This document shows positions 454-57,008 of a stretch of DNA of 64,000 nt, piece after piece. How positions within the stretch are numbered: position 1 is the stretch's first letter; each line of letters begins with the position of its first letter. Source of the stretch: Sipunculus nudus (lineage: Eukaryota; Annelida; Sipuncula; Golfingiida; Sipunculidae); contig CM049306.1 of NCBI GenBank assembly GCA_026874595.1, forward strand, positions 107,777,142 to 107,841,141. Direction: 5' to 3'. The translations under genes were made by a program, and so were the position numbers. Under the pieces are notes generated by a model that made no database searches, was not told where the DNA came from, and worked only from the letters and a program-made list of their open reading frames with translations.

Positions 454-911
454 CAGGAAATGGTTAAGCGATTTAGGAAACAACGTTGACAATGCCAGAC
501 AACTTATTTCTTATGGTTGCAAGGCTCGAAACTCCATCTGAATTATCATCAACGAGTCCTTAACAACTGTGGTCGGCTTGGCCAAACCACAGATGCAGCA
601 TGAAATTATCCATTTCCAATAAGAAATAAACCCTAGCCTTTTTTCAACTTCTTTTAAACTATTTATGGGATAATATCGGAATTGCCCTTGGTTTACTTTT
701 AGTTTTCACTAATTTTAATGCATATATTGGGAAATAAATGTAAGCACTCCTGCAAAACCTTAACGTTTGTTCGTCTTTAATATAATTTAATGTTCAGCCT
801 TTGCTTCAGTGTACAGAAATGTCTTGATATATAAAAAATATATATATATACCTGATACATTGTCTGGTAGATAAATAAATAATGATTGTTAAAGAAAATC
901 CGATTTTATAC

Positions 912-913
<2 letters not shown>

Positions 914-993
<80 letters not shown>
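914..993. repeat. (GA)n microsatellite
   Basis: About 40 GA units with one interruption near 962. It lies just beyond the donor site of the minus-strand mucin-like exon, so it falls in that gene's intron. Confidence 0.97.
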
Positions 994-996
<3 letters not shown>

Positions 997-1010
997 TTGC
1001 TTACATATAC

Positions 1011-1937
1011 CTGGTACTAATTTTGGGACAGAACTGAACATCACTCGAGTACGACCGTCTCGTGACGTCATGGATTTCGAAGTTTGGTTTAGAGAGCCTG
1101 AAGAACCGCTGTTGAATTTCGGGTTATTAATTCCTTCAGATTTTGTGTCGGGGAAATTCGAAGATTCTGGTGTAATAAAATCTGTCCTGGTCTCTGAGAA
1201 AACATCATGTATTTCTGACGTTATATGCGATGACGTGGTAGCATCACTGGGTCGCTTTGAGTCAGGCTGTTGGGTTAATGTTGTCATGTTTACAACATTT
1301 GTAAAATCGTCCACATATCTTGGAGGGTTCATAGATTTTAATTGTGATTCGTCAGTGTTGTAGCTCGTTGTTGAACTCAAGACAGATATTGTAGAGTGTA
1401 AGAATGGACCTTGTGACGTCATATTTATTGACGACACGGAATCTCCAATCGAAGTCTTCGTCGTTGCCATTTCTGTCTCGTTTTTATCAGATACCGTTTT
1501 TGTACCATGCGTAGTTGCTTCCTGGCCGTAATCTGACGTGCTAAGATCCGACACTGACCCCGTCATCACAGAACTAGAAGTCCGTGACGTCATGTTGACT
1601 GATGAATCCGTTCCAATGGAATCCACAGACGCTGACGTCAGTTCCGGTGACTGCGTTGACCCTGCTTCCGTTATCATGCCTGGAGTCATCGTGTTTGGTG
1701 CCGTTTGAAGATCAACTGATTGAATCTCCGTGTCATGTTTCGTTGAGTATTCATTCGTTGAATTACGACCTGGTGTCGTCACTTTCTCCATTTTCGAATT
1801 ATCCCCTGATTTCATGGATGGCGGTTCAATCGACACAATAACTAACCCATCCTGATGACCAAATGATGGGATAGCCCTAGGCTGCTCAGGTCTGTCATGA
1901 TTTGTAGCATTAGCTAATGACGTCACATTTTCCGTTT
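1011..1937 (-). CDS. Internal exon of a Ser/Thr-rich mucin-like protein
   Basis: On the minus strand an acceptor (TATTACAG, up to 1938) is followed by 927 nt of open frame and then a donor (CCAG|GTATATG, exon end 1011). The exon starts and ends in phase 1, so it is a symmetric 309-codon module, a pattern typical of extracellular proteins. The translation is dominated by Ser and Thr, with few hydrophobic residues, no membrane segment, and several N-glycosylation sequons (NAT, NST, NET, NMT, NQT). This is the composition of a mucin-like, O-glycosylated stalk of a secreted or membrane glycoprotein. No conserved domain is recognised. Neighbouring exons are not identified; the gene's 3' side would lie at lower coordinates or outside the window. 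The frame continues past the donor into a GA microsatellite, which would add only a Ser-Leu run and is not coding. Confidence 0.7.
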
Positions 1938-2264
1938 CTGTAATACGAAAAAAAAAATATTAGAATTGTGTAATAAGGATAAAAAATAGTGTGTTGACAT
2001 GGTAAGTACACTCCTGTTCATAAAACAGTATGAATGTAAAAATCTATCGAGAACATAACCTGCAAATCACATTATAAAAAATGACGCCGAACGATACATT
2101 TATATCACAATCACAATATCATAGTGAGAGCTTACAACGTGCCAATGAAGATCCATTCCTGAAACTGTTGTTTAAATAACAGGTTTTATAGTTCGTAAAC
2201 TACTTAAATACGCTTTTGTTCCAATCAGTCGTTTATTTTAAAGGAAAACATGACAGAAAAATGT

Positions 2265-12673: not shown

Positions 12674-14994
12674 CGATCTCTCACCAGGACACAAGCTCTC
12701 GTTGGTCTGATTACACCGGGACATAGGCTCTCGTTGGTCTGATTACACCGGACACAAGTTCTCGTTGGTCTGATTACACCGGGACATAGGCTCTCGTTGG
12801 TCTGATTACACCGGGACATAGGCTCTCGTTGGTCTGATTACACCGGGACAAAAGTTCTCGTTGGTCTGATTACACCGGGACATAGGCTCTCGTTGGTCTG
12901 ATTAAAACGGGACATAGGCTCTCGTTGGTCTGATTACATCAGGACATAGGCTTTCGTTGGTCTGATTACACCGGACACAAGTTCTCGTTGGTCTTATTAC
13001 ACCGGGACATAGGCTCTCGTTGGTCTGATTACATCGGGACATAGGCTTTCGCTGGTCTGATTACCCCGGACACAAGTTCTCGTTGGTCTAATTACACCGG
13101 GACATAGGCTCTCGTTGGTCTGATGACATCGGGACATAGGCTTTCGCTGGTCTGATTACACCGGGACACAAGTTCTCGTCGGTCTGATTTCACCGGGACA
13201 CAAGCTCTCGTTGGTCTCATTACTTCGGGACATAGGCTTTCGTTGGTCTGATTACATCGGGACATAGGCTTTCGTTAGTCTGATTACACCGGACACAAGT
13301 TCTCGTTGGTCTTATTACACCGGGACATAGGCTCTCGTTGGTCTGATTACACCGGGACATAGGCTCTCGTTTGTCTGATTACATCGGGACATAGGCTTTC
13401 GATGGTCTGATTACACCGGACACAAGTTCTCGTTGGTCTGATTACATCGGACACAAGTTCTCGTTTGTCTTATTACACCGGACACAAGTTCTCGTTGGTG
13501 TTTTTACACCGGGACATAGGCTCTCTTTGGTCTGATTACACCGGGATATAGGCTCTCGTTTGTCTGATTACACCGGACACAAGTTCTCGTTGGTCTTATT
13601 ACACCGGACATAGGCTCTCGTTGGTCTGATTACATCGGGACATAGGCTTTCGTTGGTCTGATTACACCGGACACAAGTTCTCGTTGGTCTTATTACACCG
13701 GGACATAGGCTCTCCTTTTGTCTGATTACATCGGGACATAGGCTTTCGTTGGTCTGATCACACCGGACACAAGTTCTCGTTGGTCTAATTACACCGGGAC
13801 ATAGGCTCTCGTTGGTCTGATTACACCGGGATATAGGCTCTCGTTAGTCTGATTACACCGGACACAAGTTCTCGTTGGTCTTATTACACCGGACATAGGC
13901 TCTCGTTGGTCTGATTACATCGGGACATAGGCTTTCGTTGGTCTGATTACACCGGACACAAGTTCTCGTTGGTCTTATTACACCGGGACATAGGCTCTCG
14001 TTGGTCTGATTACATCGGGACATAGGCTTTCGTTTGTCTGATAACACCCGACACAAGTTCTGTTGGTCTGATTACACCGGGACATAGGCTCTCGTTGGTC
14101 TGATTACGCCGGGACATAGGCTCTCGTTGGTCTGATTACATCGGGACATAGGCTTTCGTTGGTCTGATTACACCGGCCACAAGTTCTCGTTGGTCTTATT
14201 ACACCGGGACATAGGCTCTCGTTGGTCTAATTACATCGGGACAGAGGCCTTCGTTGGTCTGATTACACCGGACACAAGTTCTCGTTGGTCTGATCACACC
14301 GGGACATAGGCTCTCGTTGGTCTGATTACACCGGGACACAAGTTCTCGTTGGTCTGATTACACCGGGACACAAGCTCTCGTTGGTCTCATTACTTCGGGA
14401 CATAGGCATTCGTTGGTCTGATTACATCGGGACATAGGCTTTCGTTAGTCTGATTACACCGGACACAAGTTCTCGTTGGTCTTATTACACCGGGACATAG
14501 GCTCTCGTTGGTCTGATTACACCGGGACATAGGCTCTCGTTTGTCTGATTACATCGGGACATAGGCTTTCGTTGGTCTGATTACACCGGACACAAGTTCT
14601 CGTTGGTCTGATTACATCGGACACAAGTTCTCGTTGGTCTTATTACACCGGACACAAGTTCTCGTTGGTCTTTTTACACCGGGACATAGGCTCTCTTTGG
14701 TCTGATTACACCGGGATATAGGCTCTCGTTAGTCTGATTACACCGGACACAAGTTCTCGTTGGTCTTATTACACCGGACATAGGCTCTCGTTGGTCTGAT
14801 TACATCGGGACATAGGCTTTCGTTGGTCTGATTACACCGGACACAAGTTCTCGTTGGTCTTATTACACCGGGACATAGGCTCTCCTTTTGTCTGATTACA
14901 TCGGGACATAGGCTTTCGTTGGTCTGATCACAACGGACACAAGTTCTCGTTGGTCTTATTACACCGGGACATAGGCTCTCGTTAGTTACCTCCA
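12674..14994. repeat. 32-bp minisatellite, about 72 copies, with higher-order repeats
   Basis: The unit is approximately CTCGTTGGTCTGATTACACC followed by GGGACATAGGCT. Variants are GGACACAAGTT and ACATCGGGACATAGGCTTT, and the variant types alternate in a patterned way. A variant block containing TCTCATTACTTCGGG occurs at 13215 and again at 14385, followed by matching variant order, which implies a 1,170-bp segmental duplication within the array. No spacers are present, so it is not a CRISPR array. No exon signals lie inside. Confidence 0.96.
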
Positions 14995-24452: not shown

Positions 24453-25634
24453 GCAACACTATCATGATTCATTCCAAAGAAGGTGTGGCCTACAGATTGT
24501 TACTCATTGGCTGTTATCAACCACATGAATATTCATGAACTTTGCATCAGCAAGTAAATACGTGTAAAAGACATGGGTAGACTGTGTAAGGAGCTAAACA
24601 GTCGGCTTAAGATTGAGAAGAATCAACCATCAGTTATGGCGAGCTATGTTTATCATCCAGATGAAGTCAGCCTTTGGTTAGACAGAAAGACCTCCCAATA
24701 TGCAGCTGTGTCAAGTAGCCTTCATCGGTTACTGGGAGAAGAGCAAGATGAGGGCAGTTTCACCCTTGAATTGCCCATCTTCCCAAGTTACGGCGGCTGG
24801 ACTTGGGAAGAAGTGACGTCATTGAAGGACTTCCCTAACGAGGACAGCACGCAAGATACAACTTTAGCAGAGAGCCAAGATTATGCGGGTGAATTTTCTA
24901 GAACTGGTACATCATTTTCTACAGGAACAGTTGAACATGTGGACAGAGACATAAGATATGATGATGATGACGATGATGATGTAAATCATAGGACGTTTAC
25001 AGACCTTGATACCAAAAAACTTGTGAGAATGAGGCACGTTCTTCCTCTTCCCGTTAAAAAGAAGGATACTTCGGGTTGCATTACGGCAGAGGATTGTTTT
25101 AATCAGCCCTTTGAATCAACAGACTCAGTGTACTTAGGGAAACTTGAGAATGAGCGCCAAAGACTTGGAGAATATCATTATCATCAGCACTTTTATCAGG
25201 ACCACGCCCACGTGAATAAAGAATATACGACTTTCCAGGCTCGGCCAGATAATGAAAGGGTTATTTCTATGAAGGAAAGTACAGAATGTTCCAGGGATAA
25301 CATTAGCATGTATCAACATTCAGAAACTACGCAATTTAATCAGGAGGTAACTGGTCATAGGAATATTCAGTTCAGACCAAATAAAGAAGTTGGAAATAAT
25401 AATCTTACAGATCGTTGGCTGCCGGTTAAATGCCGGGCCGTGAACGAGTCTTCTCCTATGGTGCTTTTTGAGAAAACTAAAGCTGTACCATTTACAAAAA
25501 GTAGTCTACTGGAAAAAGAAGCGACCTGTAACCAATCACGATCCGAAACAGATGGTCAGATGAATCGCGTGGCTATCAGCGAGACGTGTCACGAAACAAA
25601 GAGAACATGGAAGAAACCACGCCTCACATCCAGA
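24453..25634 (+). CDS. Gene A exon 2: 5' UTR end and N-terminal coding region
   Basis: The acceptor TTTGCAG precedes 24453 and the donor AGA|GTGAGT follows 25634. Coding runs from 24573 for 354 codons, phase 0 out. The product has no recognised domain. It is rich in Ser, Thr, Glu and Asp, with an acidic Asp run and a basic end (KKPRLTSR) that leads into the bZIP exon. It is likely to be the transactivation or regulatory part, by analogy with other AP-1 factors. Confidence 0.75.
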
Positions 25635-28162
25635 GTGAGTAGAAAAGTTGCATTATTATTCCACCTTTACAAAAAAATGATGTCTTTTCATTATCCCTGT
25701 GACGCATTCAGCCAGTAAGATAATTTTTTTAGGTTTTCCTCTCTTATGTTTTTCTGTCTGTCCTTCTTTCGCTCATTGCATTAAGAACCATGCTATAAAC
25801 AGTCATGGACTTTTTCCTACAAGGGAATCAACGCTGTCGAATTACAGCCCATCAGAAATCCTATATGACTTCCAGGCTGTAATTTGGAAATTTATTTCGC
25901 GCAAATTAACTCAAGAACCGGACTGATAATTGCCTTGATTTTATTACCATTTGGTCCCTACATCATTATGTACAGAATAATACTTTTAGGCCCTTATAGG
26001 GATTCCAATGTAGCTGTCAGACAGTCAGTCACAAAATAAAAATACTTAACGCTTTACCTCGAGGATCAGCAAAGAAAATGTGGTGAAATGTTGTTTATCA
26101 ATGGTAACTATAGATTGATGTTTAATTATGGTTACAATAGATGGATGTTTAATTATGGTTACTATAGATGGATGTTAAATTATGGTAACTATAGATGGAT
26201 GTTTAATTATGGTTACTATAGATAGATGTTTAATTATGGTAACTATAGATGGATGTTTAATTATGGTAACAATAGATGGATGTTTAATTATGGTAACTGT
26301 AGATGGATGTTTAATTATGGTAACAATAGATGGATGTTTAATAATGGTAACAATAGATGGATGTTTAATTATGGTAACTATAGATGGATGTTTAATTATG
26401 GTAACAATAGATGGGTGTTTAATTATCGTTACAATAGATGGATGTTTAATTATGGTTACTATAGATGGATGTTTAATCATGGTAACAATAGATGGATGTT
26501 TAATCATGGTTACCATAGATGGATGTTTAATCATGGTTACTATAGATGGATGTTTAATTATGGTAACAATAGATGGATGTTTAATTATGGTTACTATAGA
26601 TGGATGTTTCATTATGGTAACAATAGATGGATGTTTAATTATGGTAACAATAGATGGATATTTAATTATGGTAACAATAGATGGATGTTTAATTATGGTT
26701 ACAATAGATGGATGTTTAATTATGGTAACTATAGATAGATGTTTAATTATGGTTATAATAGATGGATGTTTAATTATGGTAACTATAGATTGATGTTTAA
26801 TTTTAGTAACTATAGATGTATGTTTAATTATGGTTAGTATAGATGGATGTTTAATGATGGTTACTATAGATGGATGTTTAATCATGGTAACTATAGATGG
26901 ATGTTTAATTATGGTTAGTATAGATGGGTGTTTAATTATGATAACTAAAGACGGATGTTTAATTATGGTAACTATAGATGGATGTTTAATAATAGTAACT
27001 AAAGATGGGTGTCTAATTATAGTAACTAAAGATAGGTGTTTAATTATAGTAACTATAGATGGGTGTTTAATCATAGTAACTAAAGACGGATGTTTAATTA
27101 TGGTTACTATAGATGGATGCTTAATTATGGTAACTAAAGACGGGTGTCTAATTATAGTAACTAAAGATTGGTGTTTAATTATAGTAACTATAGATGGGTG
27201 TTTAATCATAGTAACTAAAGACGGATGTTTAATTATGGTTACTATAGATGGATGTTTAATTATGGTAACTAAATACGGATGTTTAATTATGGTTACTATA
27301 GATGGGTGTTTAATTATGGTAACTACAGATGGGTGTTTAATTATGGTAACTACAGATGGATGTTCCCTTTGGGATGGAATCGCCAAATATCAAATATAAC
27401 TGCCAGGCTGCAATCTTGAAAATCCATTTGAATCACTATAAAGTAGGACCTTTCCGGTTAATTCTTTTATCTCCTTTCTGCGTTTACAGAGGGTTGGTCA
27501 AGATGAGAAACATTTACGAAGACGTGCCCAAAACCGAGAAGCAGCAGAACGCTGCCGGAAGCGGAAGAAGGAAAATGCAGAGCAGATGAACAGGGTAAGA
27601 CAAGTACTACACTAGAGTACTGACAGTGAAAAGCTGATCTACTTTGCTTATTTAACAGTTTGAGCATGAAAGTAAATAAATTGATCACTTGAATAACAAT
27701 ATCATTTTATATACAGACTTAAAGTCCTCTATCATCAATAATATTAAAAGATTCATTCAAATGAAATTTTAACACTCGCATCGATTGTAGAAAAGATATC
27801 GTCTGAGGTATCACATCCTTCTGTGATTCTGTGATATTCAGTCACAATTTTTTATTACATTAGATACAATTAACAAAAGTTTGATGTATGTTATAATAAT
27901 TTCAGCGAATCGTTTAATTTGTACAAAATTATCTTTGCGTTTCATAATGATTCAATTGTTTATATTCTTATCACAGGAATATTACCGTGAGTTCAGTCGG
28001 TACACAGAACTCAGAAGTGAAATTGAACAACTGCAGGACACTAAACACAGGCTGGCATGTTTACTGCGACAGCACCAATATACGTGTCTATTACGTGTAC
28101 AGCAGACAGACGCAGCCTTCCAACGGTACAGTCACCATGCAAACGTCCCACATGTCAGGTAA
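24573..28162 (+). CDS. Gene A: AP-1-type bZIP transcription factor (FOS/ATF3/JDP2-like)
   Basis: The CDS is assembled from exons 24573-25634, 27490-27594 and 27977-28162, all joined in phase 0; about 450 residues. The N-terminal 354 residues are polar and unrecognised, with an Asp-rich stretch near residues 130-136. Exon 2 carries the basic region (NREAAERCR followed by KRKK), matching the bZIP signature N-x3-A-x2-C-R. Exon 3 carries the zipper. Counting the signature Asn as 1, heptad positions 19, 26, 33, 40 and 47 are M, E, L, L, L, and the helix ends H-x3-C at 54-58, as in FOS, ATF3 and BATF. The protein is expected to bind AP-1 or CRE sites as a dimer in the nucleus. The ATG is the first after an in-frame TAA (24555). 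The frame ends at 28160-28162 inside a donor-like AG|GTAAG; splicing to 28413 would change only the last residues. A possible poly(A) signal is at 29200. Orthology is uncertain because the zipper is atypical. Confidence 0.85.
26096..27362. repeat. 27-bp minisatellite, about 47 copies, in gene A intron
   Basis: The unit reads approximately ATAGATGGATGTTTAATTAT followed by GGTAACT. Variants replace ATAGATGG by AAAGACGG, mainly in the distal third. It fills most of the intron between the N-terminal exon and the basic-region exon. The nine-codon period creates uninterrupted frames on both strands; these are not genes. Confidence 0.96.
27490..27594 (+). CDS. Gene A exon 3: bZIP basic region
   Basis: 105 nt, 35 codons, phase 0/0. 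The acceptor is GTTTACAG and the donor AACAGG|GTAAGA. It encodes the DNA-contact helix with Asn, Ala, Ala, Cys and Arg at the signature positions. Cys at position 8 matches the redox-sensitive Cys of FOS and JUN. The exon has the same length and phase as the basic exon of gene B. Confidence 0.9.
27977..28162 (+). CDS. Gene A exon 4: leucine zipper and C-terminus
   Basis: It follows the acceptor TTATCACAG. The zipper contains ELRSEIEQL and RLACLLRQH, with TCLLRVQ beyond, closely recalling the end of ATF3/JDP2-type zippers (H-x-x-T-C, hydrophobic pair, R). The C-terminal tail is short, as in ATF3, JDP2 and BATF. Either the frame ends at TAA 28160-28162, or a splice from 28158 to 28413 gives a tail two residues longer. 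Confidence 0.82.
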   Translation, partial: EYYREFSRYTELRSEIEQLQDTKHRLACLLRQHQYTCLLRVQQTDAAFQRYSHHANVPHVR

Positions 28163-28284
28163 GATGGCCAAATTACTATCTTGTGGTCCGCTGATCTCAA
28201 TTATTTTCTCAGTAATTAACTCTCAACAAATATCACTGGGTAAAACTTATATAAAGTTGGATATATATATTATGTATTACACAT

Positions 28285-28318
<34 letters not shown>

Positions 28319-28409
28319 TAATTGATTGAATACACTGTTTTAATGCTAGATTGCTTTTGGTATGTGTATCTTGTTCTTCAAAGCTTCTATCATATCCTGA
28401 TTTTTTTAA

Positions 28410-29100
28410 AAGGATTCAGTGAAGAATATCGTTGAAAACCCATGTAAACCACGCAATAATAAGAACAGCCCTGATCCTCAGAGCAACGCTGATCGTGAAG
28501 GCAACATTGATCATGAGGGCACCTGATCGTGAGGGAGTTACTGATCGGCAAAAAATGGAAAATAACGGCACTGTTCATGAAAGTTAAGTGATCGTGAATG
28601 GGACTAATCAAGACCATCCTGACCTTAACTGATCGTGAAAGTAACTTAAAAGAGAACTGACCATCCGAGAAAATGACAGATAAAGTACAAGAACACCAGT
28701 CTGTCATCAGATCAGCTTATCGTAAAAGAAAACCGTCACAGCACGCTGAAGTAACTGAAAATGAGAGTAACTGGCCGTCACATTAGCACTGATAGGCATG
28801 GCCGTAAGAGCGACTGTTCGTGAGCGTAACTTACTGTCACAACAGCAATGACCATCAGAGCAACTGACAGATAGCGTAACTGATTGTCACAAGCCAATGG
28901 CCTCAGAGCAACTGATCGGGAGCGTAACTGACCGTCACAACAGCTATCATCGTCAGAGCAACTGATCGTCAGCGTAACTGACCGTCACAACAGCAATGAC
29001 CTACAGAGCAACCGTTCGTGAGCAAAGCTGAACGTCACAGGGGCACTGATCGTCAAGCACTGATCGTGAGCCTAAATTATCGTCACAAGCAACTGGTCAT
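28410..29100. repeat. Degenerate about 50-bp repeat rich in CTGATCGTGAG / CCGTCACA words
   Basis: From about 28770 to 29060 there are roughly six copies of a unit of the form CAGAGCAACTGATCG, then AGCGTAACTG, ACCGTCACAACAGCAATGAC. Looser GATCGTGA and GTAACTGA words continue back to 28480. It lies in the presumed 3' UTR or 3' flank of gene A. The first 120 nt (from 28413) keep one open frame but are out of phase with the previous exon. Confidence 0.7.
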
Positions 29101-29199
29101 TAGAACTATTTTAAATTTATATGAGATTTTGACATGTTGCCTTATTTTGGACAGGGAACTTGAGTGGCAAATCATGGATAATGTTAATTACAGAATTTT

Positions 29200-29205
29200 A
29201 ATAAA
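29200..29205 (+). terminator. Poly(A) signal candidate, gene A
   Basis: AATAAA followed by a TTTG/T-rich stretch (29215-29240), about 1.04 kb after the gene A stop. It is the first well-placed hexamer on this strand after the repeat. Confidence 0.4.
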
Positions 29206-29665
29206 TGTTAGCATTCTTTGATGTCGGGTATTCTTTTTTGTTAGTAGAATTATTATATCTAGCATGGATGTGGTCTGGGGGCTGATGGGAAGAAGACTGA
29301 AATAAAAACGGCCCGTGGGGGAAGGTCATGCTATAAAGGAAGGACAGAATGACCGGCGGGGATTTTAACATGAGCGCAAATGTAGACCCGATACGTTTGT
29401 AATGATCATATATGCATCTCGCAGAACAATTTTAAATATTACATCACGCTACCACAGACTAAGTTTTATATTTCAATGGCTTCTCACGTTGTTCTCTGAA
29501 GTCTTGAACACCAATGTGCCGAGTTTAATTTTTGAAAGGCTGACTCGAGTATCAACCTCATAAACCTACATAAATCACATGAATATGTATATGACATTTG
29601 TTCAGTTAAATCTGAAGGTTATCCCTTACGGACTTAAGAAGATACTCACACTTTTTTTTAATATG

Positions 29666-29671
29666 TTTATT
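29666..29671 (-). terminator. Poly(A) signal candidate, gene B
   Basis: AATAAA on the minus strand, about 250 nt after the gene B stop, next to an A/T-rich tract. If both signals are used, the two transcripts end within about 450 bp of each other, tail to tail. Confidence 0.4.
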
Positions 29672-29921
29672 AATATATTATAAAAGAACATCTCATGTTC
29701 ATAACACACAACATCAGTTTACAATAGGGATTTTGTACGGTATGCACCAAACAAAAGGACAAATTTCAAGTGTTTATAAACATGGCGATTCATAACCATG
29801 TGTTTAATCAAGATCACGTGACAGGGGATGATCAAAAGCCGTCTGACTAACATCACTCGAGATCATGTCATGAAACCTGATACTGTAAACAACATCTAGT
29901 TGGGATATGGATAAGTTTTTG

Positions 29922-30059
29922 TTACGGCTGCTGGCGCCATCTGGAGGGACAATTATTTAAATGAGTTTCCCATATCTGTCTGAGGCAAGCCTCCTCCTCT
30001 CTCATACCACGCACCTGTTCTGTCAAGTCTTTGTTACTCGTGACCAGCTCCAGGTACTC
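29922..30059 (-). CDS. Gene B last exon: leucine zipper and stop
   Basis: Acceptor TTTTCAG, then 45 codons and TAA at 29922-29924. It encodes EYLELVTSNKDLTEQV, then the rest of the zipper with WETHLNNC near the end. This short frame was easily missed because it is under 60 codons. Its position relative to the basic region matches gene A residue for residue. Confidence 0.85.
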   Translation of the reverse strand, partial: EYLELVTSNKDLTEQVRGMREEEACLRQIWETHLNNCPSRWRQQP

Positions 30060-30145
30060 CTGAAAACAAAGGAAACTGTGATAATGTTATGTAGCACAAA
30101 CTATAAGCTTGGTCGTGGTGTAGTAAAACACAAATGATATAATAA

Positions 30146-30196
<51 letters not shown>

Positions 30197-33100
30197 ATAC
30201 CATTTATGTTCAGGTTAGGGGTATAGGAGGAACGCACAGTCAAATTTGTCACGACTTGAATATTAATAATGCTTGATAATGTCTTTCATATGCTTTTGTG
30301 TGCAACATCTATACCGCAAACTTATCCACTGGAATCTTAATGTATAGGTCCATGTTTCTAGCATTCATATATTTATATATTAGGAGAGGGCTCGGTGCAA
30401 AATAATCTATCGCCAGCAGTTTACATTTTTATTTACACACAAGTATGTTTTGCTGGGAGCAGTACCTGGTACGTGGCTTCCGTTTTGTCCCGTTTCCGCT
30501 TCCGGCTCCGCTGGGCCGCTAGTCGGTTCTGTTCCCGCCTCCGCTCTCGCCGTTCTTGGTGACCCAGAACCTGAAATAAGGGCTCACGTTTAGTGTCCAT
30601 TATTCTAATTTTAATATCAACTACGAGCAGATTTTTTTCGTGATTGCAAGAAATATGGAAATGGAAATAGAAAATGTTAAGCACAACACCAGATCCTATC
30701 TAAAACTTCAAAGAGTGGCGACTAAAAAGGTTTCAGTTACATATTTATCATCAGAATAATTATCAACTACTTAGTTTCATCCATACCATCATAATTACTT
30801 TGATACCTTGTATAAAGAGGGGACGTCCCGACTTACTAAACCCTTGCCAAATCGTTTAAATTTCCTGGATCTTCTACTTACAATTGCCAATTGTAAGTTT
30901 ACACAAGTCATTTTTCTACTTATTAAACCCTGATGGGTGCCAGATCAGAAAAAAACTGACATTGTGGTCACCGCTGGTGATTTTTGGCGATGATAAACCT
31001 GAATGGAATGAAAGGCTCCTATACACCTGCTGTTGATTATGTAGTCAGGGTCTGCGGTTTGCGCACCGACGTATACATGGGTAAATAATCATGACTGTCT
31101 GACCCACTGACATACATACAGTTTACCAGTTACTCTGTAAAGGATAAAACATTTTTTAAAGATTGTTTTGGTATAGGCAATTAACCGCTTAAATTTGTGT
31201 AACGCTGACTTATCTTATTCTAAGGCTATAAATATTTTATCTTCAGAGTTCCATTGCGGTTTGGAACCAGGTGACATTCGCCAGCATTCGCTTCCTGTCA
31301 TTTTATTTTATATTTCGGTGTCTATCGCATCTGCAGGTCCTGGGTGGGTAATTATCCCTATTTCTGGTTCATAACACCATGGAACCCCCTAAAGACGCAC
31401 TTGATTGTCAGCGGTATACGGCTGTGGGGTACAGCCTTCCCATTAAGCCTGCAGAACGCTCATTCTGGGTGAGGGCCGACCGTGAAAATCTCACCACTCC
31501 TCGGCTGAGATTTGAACTCACGACCTCATGGCTTTGCGTCCTGTGCTTTACCCCTGAGCCACAGAAGCCGGTTATAGAGGATATAACGTTTTATTCACCA
31601 AAGCTTATTCAGAATATTAATATTTCTAAATTAAATTTGTAACCGGATATTACACTGAGTATTCACGCGAAACCTTTGATAGTTTGGATTGTGTACACGG
31701 ATACATCATAAATCTTAACAATGCTCAAAGCCTAACAGATTTCTTGAAATATCACCAAAGCTTATTTTTTACAGCTGTTTATAGATTGAGATAAAGTATG
31801 ATTTGTTATTGATGCATAGCCTTTCAAATCCTTGCTGAAAACACCATTTCTCGTGTTTTGACATATTTTAAACAGATTAAGAAGTGCAAGCATCTGTTGA
31901 AGCCTTGGTCCACAAGGTGTCGCTAATGTACCGTATAGTTAGGTGGTATACCAGTAGACTACAGGCTTGAGTTATTCCAGTGAAAGGAATTCCATTTGTC
32001 CTTATTACGAAAACGTATCGGGCACCATTTCACTGCATCCGTCAAAACTCAAGAAGGAACAATCAAATTTAAAGTCTATTTTTCAGAACTATAGTTGTTA
32101 ATAAATTATATCATACAAACAATTGTTTAAAATGTAGATGGCCACATCACATTAACTTTACTTAAGACATCAAGTTTATACAATGACTGTCATCTAACAA
32201 TGATACTTCGCCTTATTCACTATGATCAATTTTAATTGGCATCAACACCCTGTGATTTAAGACGGTCACATCCGGTCATTTCCGGTCAACACGCATCTCC
32301 TTCTAACTTGCTGGACCAAGAATTTTATAACTCTAGCAAAAGGCGTCTTTTACGACGCGGAAGTGAAGTGACCAATTTGGTTATGAAATCTTTATTACTT
32401 TCTGAATAATATACACATTTAAAAATGTAACGTCATCATTTCGGCTCATCTGTATATAAATCTTTGCTTTTTACAGAACCATGGTTGTTTTCAAACTAAT
32501 ACAGATAAATACAAGGAAGGTTAGATCAGTGGTTACACCCGGCAGTGGAGAATCAGGGGGCCTGGTGTGGGGGACACGTGGGGTTTCGTGACTGCCGTAC
32601 GACAGTTACAAGTCTAGTTTCTTTTGTTTTACATTTATCATATTTTTTATGTCTATATCTGTGTTGTATTAAAATGGCACTCCGATGGATACATAATTCG
32701 GGCGGCTGTAAATCGGACCATTTATATTATATAACCAACCAATAATAAATAAACTAATTAGTGTCTGCTGACTCGTTTGTAGTATGGAGTGTGCTACCAG
32801 TGCTGTACCTATAGCACCTTATAAGTATGATTAGTTTAACAATACCTGATATTGGGATAATTTTTTCTTTGATTTGTGGGGGCTTCTATCTTCTCTTTCT
32901 GAACTAAATGTGTCGTTTATGTCAGACAGAGAACTTTCATTTCCGTTTTCTCTCAGTTCACACACATCATTCAGTAGTTCTGGAAGGAGAGGCAAGCTGC
33001 CGTTTTCAACGATCCCATAGCTTGTACCAGGTTCGAATGATGTTCCATTTTGTTTTTCATTTGTAGAAATATTAACTTCGTGGGATGTCCGTGAATTGAT

Positions 33101-34158
33101 CTCACTCTCTCGTTTATTATAATCAATTTTCATTTTATCATGGCATTCTGCCGATTTTTCTAAAATTGTTGACGGATATTCATCTCCGGATAAAGCTGAT
33201 ATACCTCCATTGACTGTTTCCTTAGTGAAGGAGATACCCGTACCATACATTGCAATTTGTGACGCGTCGGGGCACGAGTCAACTTTCCCGGTGGTCTGGT
33301 TGACTAAATCCTCGGACCACGTGATCAGTGACAAGAGTTCTGTCGTCACGTCATCCGCCGTCCAGTCACTTGACCTTGAAACATCGCTTATGTCTGGCAC
33401 TGTCCGGCAGATGGCGCTAGTGTTAGGGGCTATCGCGGCTACGTCACTATGTGTATTTATGGCTGCGTTTCCAAATAATAGCGATAACGCTGGTCCAATT
33501 GCCTTGTCATTACTCTCCATGAGTTGTGACAGAAATTCATAGTCGGCGGTGTCCACACTCATCATGATGTTTGTTGACTTCGGATCTGGTCTTGAGCTGT
33601 AAAAAATAAGAAAATAATAGGATTTTCATGAGCAAGAACGAATTTTATTTTATTTTTTTTGTAACCGAGCAACCTAAACCAGAAATCCATATTGAGTAAA
33701 TGCAACATACACGTATACCTGCACACGCATACACACACATATATATTTAACGTATCTTAAGTTACCGAGTAAACAAAGTAAAACAAACACTAAATAACAC
33801 ATTAAATACTTTAAAAGGTTACAAGAAATTTCTATATGAACGTCTTGTAAGCTAATAAACTTTATGGAAACATCTCTCGGATGACATAGCACGAACACGG
33901 AGGGCTGGGTCACGTGATATGCTGTCGGTGAGTAATGCTGGAATCATTCGTCTGATTTCATTCTGTAATTACCTGACGACATATCGATCGATATAGGTAA
34001 CCTGTACACAGATGTGTTCGTATATATTTACATATAAATCAATATTTCATACAGAATCTGCCTGTTTCTATAACTCATTCTCTCTCTATCTGGCCATCCG
34101 TCTGTCTCTCTGGGGCCTGTCCAGTTTCTCTGTCTCACACACTATCATTCATTCATTC

Positions 34159-46180: not shown

Positions 46181-46485
46181 GTATTCCTTCCATATTTAAT
46201 TGTTCTTTTTACTTTATAAATATTTTAGCTTTTTCCTCGCGGCACAATATTGAATCAACTGATTTACCTAAAAGGGATCTATTTGAGAACATAGCCGTAT
46301 ATTACCATGCTTTAACCATGTGTAGGCTGAACAACTGGTATCCATGGTTGTAGGATTGGGTGTCCCCTTTCTGTGGTATGGATAATTCCTATAAAAAATC
46401 AGAGTATTTAGTATATAACATATTGTCTAACTACCCTAACCCTAAAAACATGGAAAGATTATAATTTATTAGCACCAGAATTATA

Positions 46486-49400
46486 TCGGTTATTTGATGT
46501 GTTTCCTTTTTGTGTAATATACGCCCTTGGAGAATGATGTCAGTTATTTGATGTTTCCTTTTTGTGTAATATACGCCCCTGGAGAATAATGTAAGTTATT
46601 TGATGTGTTTCCTTTTTGTGTAATATACGCCCCTGGAGAATGATGTCAGTTATTTGATGTGTTTCCTTTGTGTAATATACGCCCCAGCATGGAGAATGAT
46701 GTCAGTTATTTGATGTGTTTCTTGTTTGTGTAATATACGCTCTTGGAGAATGATGTCAGTTATTTGATGAGTTTCCTTTTGTGTGTAATATACGCCCCTG
46801 GAGAATGACGTCAATTATTTGATGTGTTTCCTTTTTGTGAAATATACGCCCCTGGAGGATGATGTCAATTATTTGATGTGTTTCCTTTTGTGTAATATAC
46901 GCCCCTGGAGAATGATGTAATTTTTTTTATGTGTTTCCGTTTGTGTAATATACGCCCCTGGAGAATGATGTCAGTTATTTGATGTGTTTCCTTTTGTAAT
47001 GTATGCCCCAGCATGAAAATGATGTTAGTTATTTGATGTGTTTCCTGTTTGTGTAATATACGTCCTTAGAGAATGATGTCAGTTATTTGATGAGAATACG
47101 CCCCTGGAGGATGATGTCAATTATTTGATGTGTTTCCTTTTTGTATAATATATGCCCTGGGAGAATGATGTCAGTTATTTGATGTTTCCTTTTTGTGTAT
47201 TATAATCCCCTGAGGAATAATGTAAGTTATTTGATGTGTTTCCTTTTTGTGTAATATACGCCCCTGGAGAATGATGTCAGTTATTTAATGTGTTTCCTTT
47301 TTGTGTGTAATATACGCCCCTGGAGAATGACGTCAATTATTTGATGTGTTTCCTTTTAGTGAAATATACGCCCCTGGAGGATGATGTCAATTATTTGATG
47401 TGTTTCCTTTTGTGTAATATACGCCCCTGGAGGATGATGTAAGTTTTTTGATGTGTTTCCTTTTGTGTAATAAACGCCCCTGGAGAATGATGTCAGTTAT
47501 TTGATGTGTTTCTAGTTTGTGTAATATATGCCCTTTGAGAATGATGTTAGTTATTTGATGAGTTTCCTGTTTGTGTAATATACGCCCCTGGAGAATGATG
47601 TCAGTTATTTGATGTGTTTCCTTTTTGTGGAATATACGCCCCTGGAGAATGATGTCAATTATTTGATGTGTTTCCTTTTTGTATAATATATGCCCTGGGA
47701 GAATGATGTCAGTTATTTGATGTTTCCTTTTTGTGTATTATAATCCCCTGGAGAATAATGTAAGTTATTTGATGTGTTTCCTTTTTGTGTAATATACGCC
47801 CCTGGAGAATAATGTCAGTTATTTGATGTGTTTCCTTTGTGTAATATACGCCCCAGCATGGAGAATGATGTCGGTTACTTGATGTGTTTCTTGTTTGTGT
47901 AATATACGCCCTTGGAGAATGATGTCAGTTTTTTTATGAGTTTCCTTTTTGTGTTATATACGCCCCTGGAGAATGATGTCAGTTATTTGATGTGTTTTTT
48001 TTTTTTGTGTGTAATATACGCCCCTGGAGAATGATGTCAGTTATTTGATGAGTTTCCTTTTGTGTAATATATGCCCCAGCATGGAGAATGATGTTAGTTA
48101 TTTGATGTGTTTCCTGTTTGTGTAATATACGCCCCTGGAGAATGGTGTCAGTTATTTGATGCATTTCCTTTTGTGTTATATACGCCGCTGGAGAAGGATG
48201 TCAGTTATTTGATGAGTTTCCTTTTTGTGTAATATACGCCTCTTCATGGAGAATGATGTCAGTTGTTTGATGTGTTTTCTTTTTGTGATATATGTCCCTG
48301 GAGAATGATGTCGGTTATTTGATGTGTTTCCTTTTTGTGTACTTTACACCCCTGGAGAATGATTTTAGTTATTATTTAATATCATTTATATTATTTAGTT
48401 AAAGGTATTATTAGTTTTTTTATGTGTTTTTTTTTTGTGTAATATACCCCCTTCGAGAATGATGTTAGTTATTTGATGTGTTTCCTTTTTCTGTAATATA
48501 CGCCCCTGCAGAATGATGTCAGTCATTTGATGTATTCCCTTTTGTGTAATATACGCCCCTGGAGGACGATGTCAATTATTTGATGTGTTTCTTTTGTGTA
48601 ACATACGCCCCTGGAGAATGATGTCAGTTATTTGATGTGTTTCCTTTTGTGTAATATATGCCCCAGCATGGAGAATGATGTTAGTTATTTGATGTGTTTC
48701 CTGTTCGTGTAATATACGCCCCTGGAGGACGATGTCAATAATTTAATGTGTTTCCTTTTGTGTAATATACGCCCCTGGAGAATGATGTCAGTTATTTGAT
48801 GAGTTTCCTTTTTGTGTAACATACGCCCCTGGAGAATGATGTCAGTTATTTGATGTGTTTCCTTTTGTGTAATATATGCCCCAGCATGGAGAATGATGTT
48901 AGTTATTTGATGTGTTTCCTGTTTGTGTAATATACGCCCCTGGAGAATGGTGTCAGTTATTTGATGCATTTCCTTTTGTGTTATATACGCCGCTGGAGAA
49001 GGATGTCAGTTATTTGATGAGTTTCCTTTTTGTGTAATGTATGCCTCTTCATGGAGAATGATGTCAGTTGTTTGATGTGTTTTCTTTTTGTGATATATGT
49101 CCCTGGAGAATGATGTCGGTTATTTGATGTGTTTCCTTTTTGTGTACTTTACACCCCTGGAGAATGATTTTAGTTATTATTTAATATCATTTATATTATT
49201 AAGTTAAAGGTATTATTAGTTTTTTTATGTGTTTTTTTCTTTTTGTGTAATATACCCCCTTCGAGAATGATGTTAGTTATTTGATGTGTTTCCTTTTTCT
49301 GTAATATACGCCCCTGCAGAATGATGTCAGTTATTTGATGTATTCCCTTTTGTGTAATATACGCCCCTGGAGGACGATGTCAATTATTTGATGTGTTTCT

Positions 49401-49868
49401 TTTGTGTAACATACGCCCCTGGAGAATGATGTCAGTTATTTGATGTGTTTCCTTTTGTGTAATATATGCCCCAGCATGGAGAATGATGTTAGTTATTTGA
49501 TGTGTTTCCTTTTGTGTAATATACGCCCCTGGAGGACGATGTCAATTATTTGATGTGTTTCTTTTGTGTAACATACGCCCCTGGAGAATGATGTCAGTTA
49601 TTTGATGTGTTTCCTTTTGTGTAATATATGCCCCAGCATGGAGAATGATGTCAGTTATTTGATGTGTTTCCTTTTGTGTAATATATGCCCCAGCATGGAG
49701 AATGATGTCAGGTATTTGATGTGTTTCCTTTTGTGTAATATATGCCCTAGCATGGAGAATGATGTTAGTTATTTGATGTGTTTCCTTTATCTGTAATATA
49801 CGCCCCTGCAGAATGATGTCAGTTATTTGATGTATTCCCTTTTGTGTAATATACCCCCCTGGAGAATG
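46486..49868. repeat. 54-bp satellite array, about 60 copies, with higher-order structure
   Basis: The unit reads approximately TCAGTTATTTGATGTGTTTC, CTTTTTGTGTAATATACGCC, CCTGGAGAATGATG. An odd variant with an extra AT-rich block (ACTTTACACC, ATTATTTAATATCATTTATA) occurs at 48341 and again at 49146. The surrounding variant order is conserved, so a segment of about 805 bp was duplicated. A second pattern repeats at about 522 bp (near 46900 and 47421). Minus-strand frames through this region are period artefacts. Confidence 0.96.
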
Positions 49869-50218
49869 AGCGGACTTGTACAGCAGTCCTGATCTTTCTA
49901 TTTTACACATTCGCACTTTATATACAAACAAAATTTGTTTCAAAATCCATATATTTTGCCCCAACCCCTAACTCAGTTTAAATTAATTCAACTGCATGTG
50001 TCTAAGCAATTGATTTAGCTCGAGAGTTTGCGGAGTAGGTAAAAAGAGAGAATGGACCAGTCTATACAAAGACACTGATTAGTCATAGCATATGGAGGTT
50101 GGGTAATAGGGTCCGATAATACAGTCAGTAAGGTCTGTCTCCGCCAGGTAGCGCATCATGATGCACCAACAAAGAATTTCAGAAATACTAATCGTGATAT
50201 TGTTAATAGGAGTCGGGG

Positions 50219-55671: not shown

Positions 55672-57008
55672 TCAGCTTACCAATAAAAAATCTGAAAAAA
55701 TTGTAATGACCCTGTACTTCTGTTTGCCTTTAACCACCACATTTGATTTCATTACGACCTCTGATCCTTGAACACATGAACACACTAACCATCAAAGTTA
55801 AGCTTTCCATCACAGTCCAGATCCGCCATCCGTATCATCTCATCTAGCTCCTCCTCCGTCAGACGCTCTCCGAGGTTCAGCATCACGTGACGGAGTTCTG
55901 CCGGCGTCAGGTAGCCGTCGCCATCTTCGTCGAAGATGTCGAACGCCCGCCGGACCTCCTCCTCGATCCCGCTGTCAGTCATCGTCTTACTCATCAACGT
56001 CAGGAACTCTTCAAAGTCGATCTCTCCGTTCCCATCCTCGTCCATCTCATTCACCATCTTCTTCAGCTCGTCGTCCGAGGGGTCAAGGCCGAGTGACCTC
56101 ATCACCGTCTCCAGCTCCTTGATCGTGATGGATCCGTCCCCGTCCTTGTCGAACAGAGCGAACGCTTCTTTGAATTCTGTAGAAGAATGAATAAAGCTTT
56201 CTTATTTTTGGTGACATAGAAAGCACTGAATACAGCATGTATTCTGCATTAGCCTTTAACACACGACTCATTATACATATATACTTGACTGGCAGGCAAA
56301 CTTGATTCGTGATCTCACTCATATAGAGAACTGCACTGCAACGTTCATTCATTCACTTGCACCGACATCACAGTACACAGACAGTAATCCTAAGATTCGA
56401 CATTAAGGAGCAATTAATTTGAAAGTGTGAGTATACAAACCACAGTTTTAATCTGATCTCGAAGGTAACCCGTTTCCCTGCTCGCAGGACATGTGGGCAA
56501 CCACATGTAATACGTATGAGACATGCTCGTATGCGGTCAGAAATTCAAAACACATATAGGAAGATTTACCAATACACTGAGTTCTAATGGAATATTTCCC
56601 TGAATGCATATGTTAGGAAGTACTCAATCACACCCCACGAGTAGTCTAGTTTAAAAATAGAGAAGAAAATATTTGCATGCTCATGGAGCGGTACAGTGCA
56701 GTGCTCGACAAAAGAAACCATGCAGGGACGTCAATTTAGGGGTACGGGGTTTATATCCCCTTTTTTAGGCAGGGGGTTAGCGAACGTAATCATCCCCTAA
56801 TGATATTCAGATAATAATATTTATATATTGGAAATGAAATATATTGATAATTAAATTGTGGACTTTTGTTCCAATTATGAGTTTACTATGAAATATATCT
56901 AAACCTGGTTTCTATAGAATTAACTTATACTGGAAACATAATACTTATTTTTTTAAACCTTTATTTCATTGTAAAATATTTGCAATGTGTTGTACACACG
57001 CTTAAAGT

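What the first reader, a model, noticed from the sequence alone, without database searches (positions are those of the whole stretch)
24573..33596. Convergent pair of diverged AP-1-type bZIP genes with identical intron position
Two bZIP genes face each other tail to tail. In both, the basic region is on a 105-nt phase 0/0 exon and the next intron falls after the same residue (21, counting the signature Asn as 1). Both end in H-x3-C at residues 54-58. FOS-branch genes have a short basic-region exon of about this size. The two proteins otherwise differ greatly: Cys versus Ser in the basic region, and unrelated N-termini. This suggests an old inverted duplication inside the FOS/ATF3/BATF branch, kept as a linked pair that could heterodimerise.
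Basis: partly seen in the sequence, partly recalled or inferred. Interest (0 to 1): 0.78.

Follow-up and report, generated by a model that had tools for sequence, protein, structure and literature searches.

The report
Two neighbouring AP-1-like bZIP genes
Two genes for AP-1-type DNA-binding proteins face each other tail to tail in what looks like an animal genome; they belong to the same old branch (FOS/ATF3/BATF) and to a locally expanded gene set, but they do not look like each other's closest relatives, so the pair is a fairly ordinary product of gene duplication.

Summary
Gene A (+, 24573-28162) and gene B (-, 33565-29922) are three-exon bZIP genes. Both have a 105-nt phase 0/0 basic-region exon, an intron after residue 21 and H-x3-C at residues 54-58; their N-termini show no similarity. 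Relatives come from the window's own 1.43-Gb genome. There the intron after residue 21 marks the FOS/ATF3/BATF branch: 12 branch loci have a GT donor at that place, and 0 of 20 other bZIP loci inspected break there. Spliced retrocopy fragments show that paralogue D really uses this junction. A groups with C and D (1.9 and 3.2 Mb away on the same contig): support 97-98/91-96 in five trees, shared N-terminal motifs, and a shared Glu in the zipper core. B is Ser-type and BATF-like; its nearest relative is unsure (gene H by identity). Crude zipper scores do not single out the neighbour as partner. Ordinary kind; the expansion is the more interesting part.

The parts
24573..25634 (+). Gene A exon 1: 354-residue N-terminus with a W-x-W-E-[ED]-[VI]...L-x-D-F-P motif shared with paralogues C and D
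   Evidence: local score with C 91 (0 of 500 shuffles) and with D 76 (0 of 500)
26101..27364 (+). 27-nt minisatellite, 46.8 copies, inside intron 1 of gene A (not part of the mRNA model)
27490..27594 (+). Gene A exon 2: 105-nt basic-region exon, Cys type (NREAAERCR)
27977..28162 (+). Gene A exon 3: leucine zipper, H54-x3-C58, short tail, stop
29922..30059 (-). Gene B exon 3: leucine zipper, H54-x3-C58, stop
30466..30570 (-). Gene B exon 2: 105-nt basic-region exon, Ser type (NRLAAQRSR, BATF-like)
32846..33565 (-). Gene B exon 1: 240-residue N-terminus, no relative detected
   Evidence: scores against A, C, D and G1 reached by 125, 54, 100 and 130 of 500 shuffles

Best explanation
A and B are two functional-looking genes for AP-1-type bZIP transcription factors of the FOS/ATF3/BATF branch. 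A is one of three related genes (A, C, D) spread over 5.1 Mb of one contig; B is a Ser-type, BATF-like protein. They lie together because the branch grew by repeated, partly local duplication in this lineage, with one copy inverted. The likely mode of action, inferred: each protein pairs through its zipper mainly with JUN (one JUN gene seen, C4) and binds AP-1/CRE-like sites, and the different N-termini give each dimer a different output. Shown here: gene structures, branch, the A/C/D clade, splicing of the key junction in paralogue D. Inferred: expression of A and B, partners, DNA targets, order of duplications.
For: Gene structures and Pfam matches. Own-genome relatives: C and D, H, an ATF3-like gene E, FOS, JUN and the G array. 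A+C+D 97-98/91-96 in five of five trees. N-terminal homology: A-C 91, A-D 76, C-D 163, each reached by 0 of 500 shuffles. A, C and D have Glu at zipper position d26, the other 17 of the 20 rows scored have Leu. D's exon 2-exon 3 junction appears joined, without the intron, in fragments on C10 and C9 (70 nt, scores 85 and 80; best of 50 shuffles 27 and 28; against the unspliced gene 47 and 51); the two fragments resemble each other and may stem from one event. pN/pS 0.35-0.62 in the six pairs compared. Zipper charge scores A/JUN +2, B/JUN +3, A/B +1, A/A -2; human controls FOS/JUN +4, FOS/FOS -4, BATF/JUN +5.
Against: No RNA evidence for A or B themselves. The bZIP gives only 70 columns and B is a long branch; with other rows its groupings with BATF (p 0.42), with BATF and G (0.45), with H and BATF (0.28) and with H and G (0.24) are all left open. 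In one search C's exon matched B better than H's (E 0.0012 against 0.0078). H's candidate first exon gave its only notable N-terminal score with D (64, reached by 2 of 200 shuffles, one of many comparisons), not with B. Core-position scores favour A/B slightly (2, against 1 for A/JUN and for B/JUN), so the sums are 3, 3 and 4; B/B charge +2 leaves homodimers open.
Confidence: 0.7

Rival explanations
1. One reading: one old inverted duplication made A and B, which have been kept together because they work as a heterodimer.
For: Adjacent, convergent, same branch, identical intron positions. With genes placed at random the chance of B within 10 kb of A is about 1.4e-5 (20 kb in 1.43 Gb, by hand), so the linkage is hardly accidental. 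If A/C/D and B/H are halves of one clade (84/89) the A-B duplication could be the first one. The zipper core score of A/B (2) is above A/JUN and B/JUN (1 each).
Against: A's nearest relatives are C and D, in the bZIP and the N-terminus. A+B: p 0.018-0.029 in the three tests with H, though 0.064 without H. The shared intron positions are common to the branch. Charge scores favour JUN over A/B.
Confidence: 0.2
2. The pair is a remnant of an ancient linked FOS-ATF3-BATF cluster, comparable to the ATF3-BATF3 neighbourhood of vertebrates.
For: A paper on grass carp BATF3 says that the syntenic relationship of BATF3 and ATF3 is highly conserved among its selected species (PMC6479329, passages seen). 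In this genome FOS and the ATF3-like gene E are 216 kb apart on C3. That human ATF3 and BATF3 are convergent and FOS-JDP2-BATF linked is recalled, not tested.
Against: A does not group with ATF3 in the trees; the ATF3-like gene E sits on another contig, with FOS. No other animal genome could be searched.
Confidence: 0.12
3. One or both gene models are pseudogenes or mis-joined exons.
For: No transcript evidence; decayed-looking copies exist in the same branch (C3:90.22 and 90.24 Mb).
Against: Intact frames, canonical splice sites, pN/pS below 1 in the six pairs, and the same junction joined in the retrocopy fragments of D.
Confidence: 0.06

Closest known systems
BATF family (BATF, BATF2, BATF3)
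   Same: B has the Ser-type AAQRSR basic region, Asn at zipper a30 and the H-x3-C end; A, B, C, D and H have a 105-nt basic exon, the length recalled for human BATF exon 2
   Different: Long N-termini (BATF proteins are short, recalled); B differs at two of the three zipper positions recalled as needed for the IRF partnership (20, 28, 42: Y, T, E); a clade with human BATF is neither supported nor rejected (AU p 0.42; 0.28 and 0.18)
FOS and ATF3/JDP2
   Same: Cys-type basic region in A, H54/C58, intron after residue 21 (seen here in the ATF3-like gene E)
   Different: A has Glu instead of Leu at d26 and groups with C and D, not with FOS or ATF3; the FOS of this genome has no intron after residue 21
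Paralogues C (C1:109.69 Mb) and D (C1:104.60 Mb) in the same genome
   Same: As gene A: 105-nt exon, AAE[RK]CR basic region, Y23, E26, N-terminal W-x-W-E motif
   Different: C and D are closer to each other (56% of the bZIP columns) than to A (47% and 43%); A lacks the W-I-K-Q-E motif that both have

Membership tests
bZIP superfamily | Basic region N-x2-[AS]-A-x2-[CS]-R followed by a leucine zipper | tested here: met
   PF00170 above the curated cut-off in both
FOS/ATF3/BATF branch | Tree position with FOS/ATF3/BATF against JUN | tested here: met
   100/100 in five of five trees; JUN was the only outgroup and the human rows were recalled
FOS/ATF3/BATF branch | Phase-0 intron after residue 21 | tested here: met
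   A and B. GT directly after residue 21 at 12 branch loci: A, B, C, D, E, G1, G2, G3, C3:90.25, H, J, C3:95.79. Of 20 other bZIP loci read, 19 run through residue 21 and 1 (ATF6-like) breaks elsewhere. Exceptions in the branch: FOS (no intron), C6:43.36 (GC), C3:90.22 and C3:90.24 (no GT there)
FOS/ATF3/BATF branch | H at 54 and C at 58 | tested here: met
   A and B; in the branch G2 has Y54 and G3 lacks C58
BATF family | Clade with human BATF proteins | tested here: inconclusive
   B + BATFs p 0.42; B + H + BATFs 0.28; A, B, C, D, H + BATFs 0.18
BATF family | Ser in the basic region (AAQ[KR]SR, motif recalled) | tested here: met
   B meets it; A has Cys and does not
BATF family | JUN partnership and IRF co-binding | not testable with these tools
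   only crude zipper scores
A/C/D group | Shared N-terminus, E26 in the zipper, clade | tested here: met
   A meets all three, B none
Inverted duplicate pair A-B | A and B each other's closest relatives | tested here: not met
   p 0.025, 0.018 and 0.029; 0.064 without gene H

The most novel reading that the evidence does not exclude
This animal lineage has built an enlarged AP-1 network: at least 12 FOS/ATF3/BATF-branch loci with both halves of the bZIP seen (A, B, C, D, H, E, FOS, G1, G2, G3, the copy at C3:90.25 and J on C16), in clusters on C1 and C3 and a further set on C16, against nine recalled for humans, including a Cys-type subfamily (A/C/D) with a polar core position in the zipper. 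The A-B junction may be the founder arrangement of the 105-nt-exon class.
Probability: 0.4. Interest if true: 0.5.

Novelty: new member of a known kind. Interest (0 to 1): 0.3.

Why it matters
It shows that identical intron positions in two linked bZIP genes mark the FOS/ATF3/BATF branch in this genome and not a special pair, and that the branch has expanded in clusters there. The lengths of the basic-region exon (105, 108, 111 nt) run with the subgroups in the loci read here and could serve as a rare-change marker where the 70-column bZIP alignment fails.

Tried and rejected
A recent tail-to-tail duplication of A and B: rejected by the A/C/D clade, the N-terminal homology and near-saturated synonymous sites.

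Zipper-only PF00170 hits: those I read (L028, L030, L031, L033 and the loci at C3:97.20, 97.21, 97.22 and 90.08 Mb) look like coiled coils of repeated elements. Most of the 146 matches were not read; the search's control also rang in 6 of 14 prokaryote genomes (over the cut-off in 1), so its weak matches mean little.

Locus F (C3:96.43 Mb) has a donor after residue 21 but no clear acceptor, and no zipper was found within about 2.4 kb; left out of counts and trees. Locus C6:43.36 has GC at the donor place and no zipper was sought; left out of the trees. C3:90.22 and C3:90.24 lack GT after residue 21; C3:95.79 has no zipper seen; C16:27.12, C16:27.15 and C3:90.30 were seen only as hits. None of these is in the count of 12 loci with both halves. 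A C15 fragment like D's basic exon was looked at and not classified.

Neighbour genes that could tell an old syntenic block: 10 open frames of the window scanned with Pfam; one is calmodulin-like, one passed DUF3915 through a simple Arg-Glu repeat, the rest had no match or weak ones only. tRNA and Rfam scans were empty. The molluscan haemocyanin domain PF14830 was not found, but its control rang nowhere; the species stays unknown.

Papers: eight searches, seven with listings, over open-licence papers only; none of the listed titles concerns this locus. Passages were seen of PMC6479329, PMC4736632 (outline and abstract), PMC9857879 and PMC4657243; no paper was read whole.
Full report
WHAT IS THERE. 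The window is C1:107,777,142-107,841,141 of an assembly of 1,426,538,692 bases in 153 contigs; that it is an animal follows from its FOS, JUN and other bZIP genes, by inference. Two three-exon genes face each other. Gene A (+) runs 24573-25634, 27490-27594, 27977-28162; gene B (-) runs 33565-32846, 30570-30466, 30059-29922. All introns are GT-AG and phase 0. Both proteins carry a bZIP domain above Pfam's cut-off. In both, the middle exon is 105 nt, the signature Asn is its residue 15, the next intron follows residue 21, and H54 and C58 close the zipper. The stop codons are 1,759 nt apart. Poly(A)-like hexamers exist for A at 29200 and 29301 and for B at 29808, 29671, 29662 and four further places, so the two 3' ends need not overlap.

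WHAT THE OWN GENOME SHOWS. A search with PF00170 gave 146 matches, 150 of 408 candidates being scored; those of the zipper-only kind that I read are coiled coils of repeats. Protein queries with A, B, D, G1 and H added more. Gene C (C1:109.69 Mb, +) and gene D (C1:104.60 Mb, +) have the same 105-nt exon and AAE[RK]CR basic regions. Gene H (C3:9.63 Mb) has a 105-nt exon and a Ser-type basic region. An ATF3-like gene E (C3:97.40 Mb) has a 108-nt exon; FOS is 216 kb away (C3:97.18 Mb) with its whole bZIP in one exon. A tandem array at C3:90.21-90.32 Mb and a copy on C16 have 111-nt exons. JUN is on C4. The names FOS, JUN, ATF3-like and so on are mine, from recalled motifs and the tree.

THE INTRON IS A BRANCH MARK. 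GT directly after residue 21 was seen at 12 loci of the branch: A, B, C, D, E, G1, G2, G3, C3:90.25, H, J (C16:27.11) and C3:95.79. Exceptions within the branch are FOS, the C6:43.36 locus (GC) and two array copies without GT there. Of 20 other bZIP loci whose frames I read, 19 run straight through residue 21 and one (ATF6-like, C5) breaks elsewhere; none breaks after 21. So the shared intron places A and B in the branch but says nothing special about the pair. Exon lengths run with the subgroups: 105 nt in A, B, C, D, H; 108 in E and, up to residue 21, FOS; 111 in G1, G2, G3, J and C3:95.79. That human BATF has 105 and human ATF3 and FOS 108 is recalled.

THE JUNCTION IS REALLY SPLICED IN A PARALOGUE. 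Two genomic fragments (C10:78.78 and C9:0.66 Mb) match D's exon 2 and exon 3 joined without the 1.35-kb intron over 70 nt: scores 85 and 80, best of 50 shuffles 27 and 28, against the unspliced gene 47 and 51. They look like remains of a spliced transcript put back into the genome; they resemble each other and may be one event copied. This is indirect support for the models of A and B, by homology.

RELATIONSHIPS. In five trees of 18-22 rows and 70 columns the branch stands apart from JUN at 100/100 and A+C+D is supported 97/91, 97/95, 98/95, 98/92 and 98/96. N-terminal exons agree: A-C 91, A-D 76, C-D 163, each reached by 0 of 500 shuffles, while A-B, B-C, B-D, B-G1 and A-G1 are reached by 125, 54, 100, 130 and 228 of 500. 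A, C and D share Glu at the zipper's d26 where the other 17 rows scored have Leu. B is a long branch. It reaches 46% identity with H, 37% with C, 31% with A; yet in the genome search C's exon matched B better than H's (E 0.0012 against 0.0078), and H's candidate first exon gave its one notable score with D (64, 2 of 200 shuffles, among many comparisons), not with B. A+B+C+D+H was recovered at 84/89 and 78/88; with four rows dropped the free search missed it although the held tree was 0.23 log units better. Without H, A+B+C+D stood at 55/76. A+B as sisters: p 0.064 without H, 0.025, 0.018 and 0.029.

ORIGIN OF THE PAIR. Four of the five loci read with the 105-nt exon lie within 5.1 Mb of C1, and B by chance within 10 kb of A has a probability of about 1.4e-5 (by hand). 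Local duplication is therefore the natural source. Synonymous differences are near saturation (pS 0.76-1.04; pN 0.30-0.47; pN/pS 0.35-0.62 over six pairs), so the events are old and the bZIP has been under purifying selection.

HOW IT LIKELY WORKS. Both proteins should act as AP-1-type dimers. A simple count of charges between zippers, in which human FOS/JUN scores +4 and FOS/FOS -4, gives A/JUN +2, B/JUN +3, A/B +1, A/A -2 and B/B +2. The companion score for core positions goes the other way: A/B 2, A/JUN 1, B/JUN 1; the sums are A/B 3, A/JUN 3, B/JUN 4. So the scores do not single out the neighbour as partner, and for A they do not choose. JUN is still the better guess, because the known members of this branch act mainly with JUN (recalled). 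In a scallop heat experiment, JUN was among the differentially expressed genes, and transcripts similar to BATF and to a further bZIP protein were identified (PMC4657243, passages), which suggests but does not show a stress role. One study derives FOS and ATF3 by duplication on the bilaterian stem (PMC4736632, passages).

VERDICT. A correct and careful observation of two genes of a known kind. The wider expansion of the branch in this genome is worth a look.

Noticed in passing
G000 C3:90.21-90.32 Mb (L036, L037, L041, L076-L084): Tandem array of at least five Ser-type FOS-branch bZIP genes or remnants with a 111-nt type basic exon, two of them without a GT donor after residue 21; similar copies on C16:27.11-27.15 Mb, one of three read.
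   Followed up: partly
G000 C10:78783188 and C9:656957 (L065, L066): Spliced retrocopy fragments of gene D, nearly alike in both places; a sign that D was once transcribed in the germ line.
   Followed up: partly
G000 C3:97.18 and 97.40 Mb (L012, L039): FOS and an ATF3-like gene 216 kb apart on the same strand; FOS has no intron after residue 21 although its relatives do.
   Followed up: partly
L071 (G000 C6:43361512): A FOS-branch-like basic exon followed by GCGAGT where a GT donor is expected; perhaps a GC-AG intron or a decayed copy.
   Followed up: no
L072 (G000 C4:38762660): One long open frame with two bZIP-like basic regions, each with a zipper-like stretch, about 400 residues apart.
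   Followed up: no
window 55788-56201 (-): Calmodulin-like exon with four EF hands (Pfam).
   Followed up: no
window 892-1959 (-): Open frame of 356 codons, rich in Ser and Thr, without a Pfam match.
   Followed up: no
window 12682-14983, 46477-49869, 26101-27364: Large minisatellites (units 32, 54 and 27 nt); the last fills most of intron 1 of gene A.
   Followed up: no
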